Source of the DNA: Coleofasciculaceae cyanobacterium
GTDB lineage: Bacteria > Cyanobacteriota > Cyanobacteriia > Cyanobacteriales > Xenococcaceae
Length of the DNA stretch: 64,000 nt
NCBI GenBank assembly: GCA_036703275.1
Contig: DATNPK010000021.1
Coordinates: forward strand, 1 to 64,000
Direction: 5' to 3'
Shown: positions 57,716 through 59,781 of the stretch, one piece after another
Position numbering within the stretch: position 1 is the stretch's first letter
How the letters are laid out: the number at the start of each line of letters is the position of its first letter
Notes under the pieces: generated by a model
What the model was told of the DNA's origin: nothing
Databases searched by the model: none
Seen by the model: the letters and a program-made list of their open reading frames with translations, nothing else
Position numbers and translations under genes: made by a program

Positions 57716-58138
57716 TTAATCTTCTTCAATTATCTGCTCAATTGTATAGGGGCAGTTTTCAGGAAAGCGATCGCTCAATTCTGTTTTGTACTCAACAATT
57801 TTCCTGCTTTGTTTGTAGATAAGCTGAAGATTTTCTGTTAAATATTTTCTATAGTTTGTTGTGAGTCTGTCTTGTAATTCACTTTGAAAACTTACTACTT
57901 CAGCTCGCCAATGGTTGCGAGTTTGTGCTTGTTCATGCCAATAATCAATTAGTAAGCGATGAACAATAATTTGACGGCAAAAACTTTTACAAGCGTTTCT
58001 TTGCTCTCTACCCAAATCTTCTAACTCTTCTACAATATTGTCTAGATCTAGCTGATCAAACTTATGTAATCGCAAATATTTAACTTGTTTGTCAAGCCAA
58101 ACATCCCATTCTTCTTGTTTTGTAGTTTTTTCAATCAT
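57716..58138 (-). CDS. DUF29 family protein
   Basis: A 140-residue helical protein with DUF29 hallmarks: EEWDVWLDKQVKYLRLHKFD, LDNIVEELEDLGREQRNACK and WRAEVVSFQSELQDRLTTNY, and a C-terminal CPYTIEQIIEED. DUF29 genes are abundant and variable in cyanobacteria and often lie near mobile elements, as here next to the IsrB-like gene. Function unknown. Confidence 0.9.
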   Translation of the reverse strand: MIEKTTKQEEWDVWLDKQVKYLRLHKFDQLDLDNIVEELEDLGREQRNACKSFCRQIIVHRLLIDYWHEQAQTRNHWRAEVVSFQSELQDRLTTNYRKYLTENLQLIYKQSRKIVEYKTELSDRFPENCPYTIEQIIEED

Positions 58139-58230
58139 TTTATGACTTTCAAATTATTTATTTGTTCGACAACTCCCGATTGATAATCACGAATAACTAG
58201 AACCATCAAATATTTGCACTCTTAGTACTG

Positions 58231-58255
58231 CGGCTATAAAACTATGTTTTAGCCG
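58231..58255. repeat. Hairpin at the 3' end of the IsrB-like gene (possible element end)
   Basis: CGGCTA (58231-58236) pairs with TAGCCG (58250-58255), and AAAC pairs with GTTT inside around a TAT loop, overlapping the stop codon. IS200/IS605-type elements carry such subterminal hairpins for transposase recognition; a terminator role is the alternative. Confidence 0.45.
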
Positions 58256-59358
58256 TAGAGGAATCGTGCGCCTCCAATTATGTTTTTACAAATTAAATTA
58301 GTAGAACGTTTTACTAGCTTGACTTTGTTAGCCACATATTTACCTAATCTCTTCCAGTTAACATCTGATACCGAAATACTTTTACCTGTATATCCAGAGC
58401 AATAGCCTAATTTGTCTTTATATCTGACTAAATCACCTTTGCGGATATCAAAAGGAGTAGTACTGCCACCATATTTACGTCTTTGTCCACCCTTTGCTGG
58501 CACTAATAGATGAAGCTGTCTTCTAGATATTGGTGGACGACGAATAACGAAGAAGGGACAAGGTGTAATTCTTACTCGTCCCTGCCAGCAATGACCTCTA
58601 CCTTGAGAATTCTCAAAAGGTAAGTAATCTTTAAATACCGAAGATGCTAACACCAGGCTGTCAAGACTGTGGGTTTCTGGAACTGCATCGCCCTTAGAGT
58701 GTTTTTGTTTGGGTAAGCCGAAATGTTCTCTTAGCTTTGCTGTTTGCCAACCAAATTTAGTTGTAACAGGCGCAATTTTAGATAGCTGCTTAATTGCCCA
58801 CTTTTGCCCCACTTGGACTGGCGAGAAAGAACACCTTTTCTTTGTCTTGGCTTTAACATACTCAAAAACTATTTTAGTTATTGGATAAATTTTAGCTAGC
58901 TCAGAAATAACTCGAATTTCCCAAAGACGATTGCTCTTTACAGATGGGACGACTTTCTTTTGTCTGCGGTTATTAAATCGGCATTGACGATGAGCGCGAA
59001 ATTTAAAAGGTATAGAGCGATCGATTCTCCTGCCTCTCCTACTACGGCGCATCATTCGACGTTGTTCCATTCGTTTTTTGACAGTTTCAAAAGGTAAAAA
59101 TAAATGAGCAGTAAACAGAGTAAACCTACTGCTTTGTACACCTACTGCCGCATACTTTTTTCCAGGATCTAATCCTGCTGCTATTAGTTGAGTCTTTCTG
59201 TTCTCAGGCTCAAAAGTTAATTGAATATAATAAACTCCAAGCTGGTTAAATAACCCTACTGCTTTGCCGTCACGCACTAATCTCCGAGCTTTAGAAGGAC
59301 GGGTAGGCATAAGCGGGACATTGTTTTTATCTACTACTGGTACTCGTTCTTGTTTCAT
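58249..59358 (-). CDS. isrB: IsrB-like RNA-guided RuvC protein (IscB/IsrB family)
   Basis: A 369-residue protein of the OMEGA family. The N-terminal PLMP domain (VPVVDKNNVPLMPTRPSKAR) is followed by RuvC-I with the catalytic Asp in LIAAGLDPGKKYAAVGV. An arginine-rich bridge helix (MEQRRMMRRSRRGRRIDRS) comes next, then RuvC-II Glu in KIVFEYVKAK, and RuvC-III in ETHSLDSLVLASSV. Only about 65 residues separate RuvC-II and III, leaving no room for an HNH domain, which points to IsrB (nickase type) rather than IscB. No TnpA is adjacent. The 5' flank carries an omega-RNA-like structure. ATG at 59358. Confidence 0.85.
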   Translation of the reverse strand: MKQERVPVVDKNNVPLMPTRPSKARRLVRDGKAVGLFNQLGVYYIQLTFEPENRKTQLIAAGLDPGKKYAAVGVQSSRFTLFTAHLFLPFETVKKRMEQRRMMRRSRRGRRIDRSIPFKFRAHRQCRFNNRRQKKVVPSVKSNRLWEIRVISELAKIYPITKIVFEYVKAKTKKRCSFSPVQVGQKWAIKQLSKIAPVTTKFGWQTAKLREHFGLPKQKHSKGDAVPETHSLDSLVLASSVFKDYLPFENSQGRGHCWQGRVRITPCPFFVIRRPPISRRQLHLLVPAKGGQRRKYGGSTTPFDIRKGDLVRYKDKLGYCSGYTGKSISVSDVNWKRLGKYVANKVKLVKRSTNLICKNIIGGARFLYG

Positions 59359-59364
59359 TTAAGA

Positions 59365-59570
59365 TAATTCTCCGTAGAGTTTTTGTTCCTTCGACCAACT
59401 TAATCAGGATGTCTTGCCGTTACGCCCGACTGAATCCAACAGTCTTAGAGAGGTACGAGTTAGGAAAACGCTCGTACGTCCGTTCCAGATTAAGTCTCAT
59501 GGTCTAGTCAATTCTCAGACAAATTGGATTTTGTCACAGCACGCGACCATATCCCAAAGGATTGGTCGTA
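59365..59570 (-). ncRNA. Candidate omega RNA of the IsrB-like protein
   Basis: Between the isrB start and the avtA-like gene, several stems can form. CGACCA...TGGTCG with ATCC/GGAT is at 59544-59568. GACC (59393-59396) pairs with GGTC (59501-59504), enclosing ACTTAATC (59398-59405) with GATTAAGT (59488-59495). Inside are hairpins GACTG/CAGTC (59428-59444) and GTACGAG/CTCGTAC (59453-59477). A multi-stem RNA directly upstream of the ORF is the known layout for IscB/IsrB guides; the guide would lie at the 5' end (beyond about 59570). Exact ends are unknown. Confidence 0.7.
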
Positions 59571-59781
59571 GTTATTGACATCTAATGGTATCAATAGTCA
59601 TTTTTTGGATAGCATTTAACTAATTATTTCTTTTCTTGATCGACAATCTACCTATTAGTTTATCGGCGCGAACAAACATTGTTTATTTATGGCGATCGCC
59701 TTTTTAGGCTCGATTAATAATCAACTCAAGTTAAAATAAGCGATACAGTTCTTTTTATTAATTAATTTTAGGTAACTATCA

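What the first reader, a model, noticed from the sequence alone, without database searches (positions are those of the whole stretch)
58231..59597. IsrB-like OMEGA nuclease with a folded 5' RNA
The protein shows PLMP, RuvC-I Asp, Arg-rich bridge, RuvC-II Glu and a RuvC-III motif with too little space for HNH, the IsrB layout. Upstream, at least four stems (including GACC..GGTC enclosing ACTTAATC/GATTAAGT, and a hairpin of about 10 bp at 59544-59568) occupy about 200 bases exactly where omega RNAs lie. All RuvC residues appear intact, so the system may be active. The family itself is known (OMEGA nucleases); this particular ortholog and its RNA look like a new member.
Basis: partly seen in the sequence, partly recalled or inferred. 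Interest (0 to 1): 0.75.

Follow-up and report, generated by a model that had tools for sequence, protein, structure and literature searches.

The report
IsrB jumping element with guide RNA
This cyanobacterial stretch is a small jumping element that carries an RNA-guided DNA-nicking protein of the IsrB kind and, just ahead of it, the folded RNA that would guide it; relatives of it often sit exactly in front of the start signal of other genes.

Summary
Observation confirmed, interpretation supported. The ORF at 58249-59358 (-) matches solved DtIsrB over residues 5-360 (E 6e-46), keeps the RuvC residues (D64, E166, H230/D233) and has no HNH. The RNA ahead of it is an omega RNA: Rfam HEARO at 59579-59379 (E 7e-8, below gathering), and 52 base pairs including the nexus pseudoknot show strong compensatory change. 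Its 5' edge is base 59579; bases upstream are guide/host flank. A base-exact empty allele of a relative defines the element; by homology it is 58207-59579 here, beside motif ATGG. Added findings: (1) in 83 elements the residue at DtIsrB position Q326 tracks the fourth motif base (Q with A 78/78; K/R with G 4/4, window K; Y with C 1/1); (2) 23 of 61 ATG-type elements open an ORF of at least 100 aa at that ATG, and 13 of the 23 are backed as native start codons (cphA, secF, nifE, cpcS and others). Family, RNA and NTG motifs are published: new member of a known kind. The start-codon pattern was in no listing or passage I saw. Activity and expression untested.

The parts
59580..59599 (-). Predicted 20-nt guide, read from host flank (GACTATTGATACCATTAGAT)
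   Evidence: Bases directly 5' of the conserved scaffold; this side is unrelated between loci; length 20 taken from DtIsrB (PMC9581776, passages); coordinates
59365..59579 (-). Omega RNA scaffold (HEARO-type)
   Evidence: RF02033 at 59579-59379, 42.8 bits, E 6.9e-8, gathering 83; model R1, in whose training set it is, at 59579-59365; covariation
59574..59579 (-). 5' strand of first stem S1 (pairs with 59507-59512); base 59579 covaries G-C/U-A
   Evidence: 8 GC and 8 UA at the first pair in 16 sequences
59544..59568 (-).
   Evidence: part of helix 2, 7 of 8 pairs with two-sided change
59524..59527 (-). Adaptor pseudoknot, first strand (partner 59436-59439)
   Evidence: helix 1: 84.4% of cells paired, 3 of 4 pairs with two-sided change; 8-base complementarity in the window
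59501..59504 (-). Nexus stem GACC (partner GGTC 59393-59396)
   Evidence: helix 3
59488..59496 (-). Stem GACTTAATC (partner GATTAAGTT 59397-59405)
   Evidence: helix 4
59463..59466 (-). Nexus pseudoknot, loop strand TTCC (partner GGAA 59386-59389)
   Evidence: 98.4% of cells paired helix 7; 98.6%, where the model behind the alignment did not contain this helix
58249..59358 (-). isrB gene, 369 aa, RuvC nickase type without HNH
58207..58248 (-). Element right end with hairpin (CGGCTA...TAGCCG, reaching into the end of the ORF), last base G58207
   Evidence: 3' alignment of relatives; empty allele of a relative; coordinates
58203..58206 (-). ATGG, the inferred target-adjacent motif on the host side of the right end
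57716..58138 (-). Host DUF29 gene downstream, same direction, starting 68 nt after the first base of the motif
   Evidence: in G017 neighbour of the aminotransferase gene without isrB

Best explanation
The window holds a 1373-bp IS200/IS605-type (ISC) element of cyanobacteria made of an omega RNA, isrB and a hairpin right end, without its own transposase. A transcript starting in host DNA upstream would carry about 20 nt of flank as guide, then the scaffold, then the isrB message; the RNA folds with the S1, SL1, SL2, nexus, SL4 and SL5 parts and two pseudoknots and is bound by IsrB. The complex recognises DNA matching the guide followed by NTGG (window: ATGG), that is the empty allele of its own insertion site, and nicks the non-target strand with its RuvC site, which should favour copying the element back by repair. 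Shown here: protein family, predicted fold, RNA structure, borders by homology to a base-exact empty allele of a relative, motif and its correlation with residue 340. Inferred: transcription, nicking, and the retention role.
For: DtIsrB match E 6.4e-46 over residues 5-360 and first structural match 8dmb_P, E 1.6e-29, TM 0.66/0.73 (model pLDDT 77.2, pTM 0.75). HEARO over model 1-211; it also shows in 5 of 14 loci searched at E up to 0.5, one of the other nine being the window's own locus. Covariation incl. nexus and adaptor pseudoknots. Model R1 has a match in 38 of 44 sources, 16 training elements among them, and in 17 of 18 loci chosen from the 59 fetched later. Empty allele in G002: 335 nt left (96%) and 308 nt right (99%) abut exactly as ...CAACCTCA|ATGG, the occupied copy having 1460 bp between them, no duplication. 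Residue 340 versus fourth base: Q 78/78 A, K/R 4/4 G, Y 1/1 C; in DtIsrB Q326 reads this base and Q326R accepts G (PMC9581776, passages). On the tree ATGG needs at least two changes (bootstrap not settled).
Against: HEARO score is about half the gathering threshold, and two wider Rfam searches and the window's locus missed it. NCBIfam IscB cutoff not reached (94 of 175 bits), as expected without HNH. The window insertion itself has no base-exact empty allele: G017 lacks isrB between the same two genes but the spacer is too diverged. The G002 proof rests on two contigs of one assembly. With up to 3 mismatches the guide plus NTG was found in 27 family genomes only at the element itself and at one shared 2-mismatch site in G011/G012, taken as chance. 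The window protein has a longer end branch (0.35) than its nearest relative (0.094), though only 4 departures at conserved columns. In L253 and L255 the residue at the R323 position is K although the third base stays G. No transcript data.
Confidence: 0.93

Rival explanations
1. The element is a decaying relic: protein and RNA keep the fold but no longer nick or are not expressed.
For: Long end branch; no Y1 transposase match on its contig; another copy in the same genome, C54, has an unclear right end.
Against: ORF intact, catalytic residues kept, 4 departures at conserved columns against up to 8 in relatives; both pseudoknots complete in the window RNA, though not every small-stem pair is.
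Confidence: 0.2
2. The 5' conserved structure is mainly a cis-regulatory leader of isrB (or an end structure needed for transposition), not a guide RNA.
For: It lies between element end and ORF and reaches almost to the start codon; expression not shown.
Against: Same family as the RNA of IscB/IsrB systems (HEARO match; S1, nexus and both pseudoknots as described in PMC9581776); abrupt conserved 5' edge with unrelated flank; a copy with the isrB ORF reduced to its first residues keeps the RNA (L111), and three more RNA loci showed no isrB match.
Confidence: 0.05
3. It is an IscB whose HNH was recently lost, or a TnpB.
For: Pfam RRXRR and a sub-cutoff NCBIfam IscB hit.
Against: Best sequence and structure match is IsrB; the four IscB chains match best only within residues 5-163; the 31 relatives aligned in A5 are equally short (333-407 aa).
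Confidence: 0.02

Closest known systems
DtIsrB and its omega RNA (PDB 8dmb; PMC9581776, passages seen)
   Same: Domain order, RuvC residues, absence of HNH, S1/SL1/SL2/nexus/SL4/SL5 layout, adaptor (SL2-SL5) and nexus (SL4) pseudoknots, NTG-type motif
   Different: 32% identical in the structural alignment; Q326 is K340 here, predicting G at the fourth motif base; scaffold about 215 nt instead of 262
Cyanobacterial CwIsrB and DsIsrB (same paper, passages)
   Same: Cyanobacterial, active in vitro, NTG motif, same pseudoknot wiring (group B)
   Different: Not compared residue by residue; their sequences were not at hand. NTGG reading as predicted here is published for BbIsrB
HEARO RNA, Rfam RF02033
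   Same: Whole model 1-211 aligned
   Different: 42.8 bits against a gathering score of 83
Microcystis orf2067 element that jumped into phage Mic1 (PMC11237433, section 8 and passages)
   Same: IsrB-like gene with 207 bp upstream and 59 bp downstream inserted at ATGA: same anatomy and motif type
   Different: Another element, inserted inside a gene rather than at a start codon

Membership tests
IsrB | PLMP domain, split RuvC with bridge helix, catalytic residues | tested here: met
   the bridge region is modelled with low confidence
IsrB | No HNH domain, about 350 aa | tested here: met
   369 aa, short RuvC-II to III linker
IsrB | C-terminal TAM-interacting domain | tested here: met
   aligned to residue 360; R337 and K340 align with R323 and Q326 (numbering offset inferred from Pro17/Pro20 of the paper); base-residue correlation
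IsrB | RNA-guided nicking of the non-target strand | not testable with these tools
   needs biochemistry
Omega RNA (HEARO) | Conserved secondary structure upstream of the nuclease gene | tested here: met
Omega RNA (HEARO) | Score at or above the curated Rfam threshold | tested here: not met
   42.8 versus 83 bits; the claim rests on the E-value, the full-length alignment and the covariation
Omega RNA (HEARO) | Nexus and adaptor pseudoknots | tested here: met
   adaptor weaker (84.4% of cells, alignment loose there)
IS200/IS605 (ISC) element | Insertion without target duplication next to a fixed short motif | tested here: met
   for relative L024 by empty allele; for the window by homology only
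IS200/IS605 (ISC) element | Y1 transposase tnpA in the element | tested here: not met
   14 matches in the genome, none on the window's contig; PMC9755519 (passages) says only few HEARO nucleases lie near tnpA
IscB | HNH domain between RuvC-II and RuvC-III | tested here: not met

The most novel reading that the evidence does not exclude
ATG-motif IsrB elements of cyanobacteria are start-codon elements: their target motif can be the start codon itself, they enter the 5' untranslated region exactly before ATG, borrow the host promoter to make a guide from the host's own leader, and many give back a ribosome-binding sequence at their right end so that the host gene, even one such as secF, stays expressed. 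The motif's fourth base is set by one residue (Q: A, K/R: G, perhaps Y: C) that has switched repeatedly in nature; the window element is a G-reading example.
Probability: 0.5. Interest if true: 0.75.

Novelty: new member of a known kind. Interest (0 to 1): 0.55.

Why it matters
The window gives one more compact RNA-guided nickase with a complete, well-supported guide RNA and a predicted NTGG motif. The wider result turns insertion sites into a natural readout of target-motif specificity that agrees with a published point mutation, and suggests how an element whose guide lies outside its own ends could live at start codons without silencing its host gene.

Tried and rejected
Rfam at gathering level on the whole window and on 461 bases at E up to 10 gave no HEARO; only the 231-base search did. 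NCBIfam IscB is below cutoff. PADLOC: nothing at E 0.001. Single-sequence folding is weak evidence. The window's own empty site was sought in 27 family genomes from both flanks: G017 has the two neighbours without isrB, but no base-exact junction. A search for the window guide plus NTG found nothing convincing. On the first 20 ATG-type elements, ORFs of 100 aa or more alone were not significant (6 of 20 against 15.4%, P 0.075); in the larger set they were (23 of 61, P 1.9e-5), against a control drawn from other flanks (window and 11 loci), not matched genome by genome. The link between residue 331 (S or Y) and ATG or TTG motif was seen but goes with one clade split. The consensus promoter scan found fewer hits (3) than shuffles (mean 6.4).

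Limits of the counts: right-end borders of the 83 elements were read by eye as the first NTG after the right-end hairpin, not blind to the downstream ORF; only L024 has a base-exact proof. 30 of the 61 ATG-type borders open a frame under 60 codons. In one search the residue of the elements of the first set was entered as Q by default except for the three read otherwise; L008 and L010 are the elements read there as L023 and L027. Dropped before counting: L249, L036, L039 and L016 (end of contig or truncated), L263 and L278 (right end unclear), L273 (same insertion as L239), L281, L040 and L048 (no border called), L031 (N-terminal part, its C-terminal part L044 counted), L045, the distant L032, L033, L049, duplicates of one element under two locus names, and the places that were not fetched. 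Relatedness lowers the effective number; on the tree of 32 proteins ATGG needs at least two changes; L261 and L258 were not on that tree.

Full report
What is there. On the minus strand at 58249-59358 lies one intact ORF of 369 aa. It carries Pfam RRXRR (E 4e-42). Against sequences of solved structures the best match is Desulfovirgula thermocuniculi IsrB (8dmb, E 6.4e-46, residues 5-360); the four IscB sequences listed match best within residues 5-163. PLMP, D64, E166, H230 and D233 are present; M17 of PLMP and those four are invariant in an alignment of 32 proteins. An AlphaFold2 model (pLDDT 77.2, pTM 0.75, low confidence at 91-110, 124-134, 278-298 and 362-369) finds 8dmb first (E 1.6e-29), then IscB chains, and RuvC resolvases further down. 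There is no HNH.

The RNA. The DNA between the upstream flank and the start codon is conserved in relatives, with an abrupt 5' edge: left of it the sequences are unrelated, right of it they align (13 sequences). The edge is G59579; this base is G when its partner is C and T when it is A (8 and 8 of 16 sequences). RNAalifold on 16 sequences gave 34 pairs, 25 with two-sided change. A named structure of 52 pairs, including the nexus pseudoknot, has 93.4% of 820 cells paired, 36 pairs and 179 cells with two-sided change, against 73.5%, 24.4 and 59.7 in shuffles and no more than 48.5%, 15 and 32 when slid by 1-3 columns. A covariance model built without the pseudoknot found the RNA in 38 of 44 sources, its 16 training elements included; the six without a match were L022, L032, L033, L044, L045 and L049. 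On that alignment (36 distinct rows) the pseudoknot pairs in 98.6% of cells, written UCCC/GGGA, UCGC/GCGA, UCUC/GAGA, UUCC/GGAA or UUUC/GAAA. The adaptor pseudoknot between the SL2 and SL5 loops, counted apart, pairs in 84.4% of cells; the alignment is loose there. Rfam HEARO covers 59579-59379 over the whole model, 42.8 bits, E 6.9e-8, below the gathering score of 83. It also appears in 5 of 14 loci searched together, the window's own locus being one of those without a match in that call. Wider searches of the window missed it. The layout agrees with the DtIsrB RNA described in PMC9581776 (passages seen).

Element borders. In genome G002 of the same family one contig holds the element and another the same site without it: 335 nt on the left (96%) and 308 nt on the right (99%) meet as ...AACAGCAACCTCA|ATGGATATAC, while the occupied copy has 1460 bp starting GTCAACGAC and ending ATATTTG, with no duplication. 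Both contigs come from one assembly, so a strain mixture or a second gene copy is possible; the junction is the same either way. By homology the window element runs from G59579 to G58207 (1373 bp) and the next host bases are ATGG, 58206-58203. The window's guide would be GACTATTGATACCATTAGAT. Neighbours are an aminotransferase-like gene on one side (name from the sequence, not scanned) and a DUF29 gene on the other; in G017 these two lie close together without isrB. The genome holds four isrB matches and four omega RNA matches and 14 Y1 transposase matches, none on this contig.

Target-motif code. In DtIsrB, R323 reads G3 and Q326 reads A4, and Q326R accepts G4 (PMC9581776). The window has R337 and K340 there. 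In 32 elements the fourth base was A with Q in 29 of 29 and G with K or R in 3 of 3 (window K, L021 R, L024 R). After adding 57 fetched loci (53 of the 58 places, the other five being already held, plus four) and dropping those listed in Tried and rejected, 83 elements remain: Q with A 78 of 78 (55 ATGA, 22 TTGA, 1 GTGA), R or K with G 4 of 4, Y with C 1 of 1. L039, in the 32, is not in the 83 because its contig ends. In the tree of 32 proteins ATGG occurs in two places: window with L021 (96/98), and L024 beside L037, which has Q and ATGA (96/99); the bootstrap had not settled. At the R323 position two elements (L253, L255) have K with an unchanged G. The window element is thus predicted to need NTGG.

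Start codons. In ATG-type elements (60 ATG, 1 GTG) the motif is often a start codon: 23 of 61 open an ORF of at least 100 aa there, some running off the fetched stretch, against 263 of 1707 ATGA/ATGG sites in held flanks (15.4%; 46 of 1707, 2.7%, as first ATG with a short open stretch upstream) and 2 of 22 TTG-type elements (Fisher 0.014). Of the 23, eleven match a protein family from within its first three profile positions and the first 12 residues: cyanophycin synthetase, DAHP synthase, a response regulator, an SDR epimerase, maltose acetyltransferase, CpcS/CpeS, NifE, SecF, DUF1350, DUF3593 and Uma2; L262 meets the same rule only with a short HTH domain and is not counted. Two more are supported by relatives without the element: for L022 homology begins at that ATG in the 7 fetched relatives; for L026 4 of 5 relatives tested aligned, from the ATG or up to 7 bases before it. 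The other ten are not shown to be native starts: no family at the limits used (L012, L229, L250; L250 not scanned against Pfam), or matches beginning further in (L011, L227, L230, L236, L257, L261) or the short domain (L262). In Microcystis phage LMM01 the element ends directly before the annotated start of gp170. An SD-like tetramer lies 16 to 4 nt before the border in 28 of 61 ATG-type against 1 of 22 TTG-type elements (Fisher 5e-4). Against exclusiveness: 30 of 61 borders open fewer than 60 codons, and the Mic1 insertion lies inside a gene. In the window the ATGG opens only a 23-codon frame; DUF29 starts 68 nt further on, so the window itself is not a start-codon case.

How it most likely works. 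Because the guide comes from outside the element, its transcript must begin in host DNA; entry just before a start codon puts the element behind a host promoter and keeps the gene on the same transcript. This step is inference. The guide then matches the empty allele next to the motif, and nicking there would favour recopying, as proposed for related systems (recalled, not read here).

What is known. IsrB, its RNA, NTG motifs and activity of cyanobacterial members are published (PMC9581776). Insertion of a Microcystis IsrB element at ATGA was reported in PMC11237433 (section 8 and passages). I recall that the original HEARO description named ATGA/GTGA integration sites, but no call showed it. 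Searches for IscB or IsrB with 'start codon' and for HEARO with IscB, Arthrospira, ATGA or 'mobile' listed no paper whose title or abstract start concerns start-codon insertion; PMC9755519 has neither 'ATGA' nor 'start codon' in its main text. Apart from the papers named, only listings were seen (and one passage of PMC8400943), and the library lacks most subscription journals.

Verdict. The window element is a new member of a known kind; the insertion-site pattern and the natural motif code are the parts a specialist would want to follow.

Noticed in passing
L282:880-1010 (Microcystis phage LMM01) and L283:880-1010 (MaMV-CH01): Upstream of the phage omega RNA lie three extra copies of its 5' strand (GTCRCTAACC; the first copy in MaMV-CH01 is shortened), 38, 38 and 28 nt apart in LMM01, with partly different sequence between them, like a tiny repeat-spacer array of the strand that crRNA is said to replace (PMC9581776); could also be plain tandem duplication.
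   Followed up: partly
L111, G015:C7:3085540-3085766: Omega RNA (159 bits) followed by only the first residues of isrB: an internally deleted element that keeps the RNA. L123, L108 and L117 also have the RNA without an isrB match.
   Followed up: partly
G000:C82:55610-56953: The same genome carries a second IsrB type with a TTGA border (L004), so two motif types coexist.
   Followed up: partly
L258 (G167:C4): Tyrosine at the motif-reading position and ATGC at the border, a possible C-reading IsrB.
   Followed up: no
L040 upstream of isrB: Two omega RNA 5'-end-like motifs about 120 nt apart.
   Followed up: no
L254, L240, L226, L274: Elements sit exactly before the start codons of secF, nifE, cphA and a DAHP synthase gene, which suggests these genes are still expressed; whether the genomes hold second copies was not tested.
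   Followed up: partly
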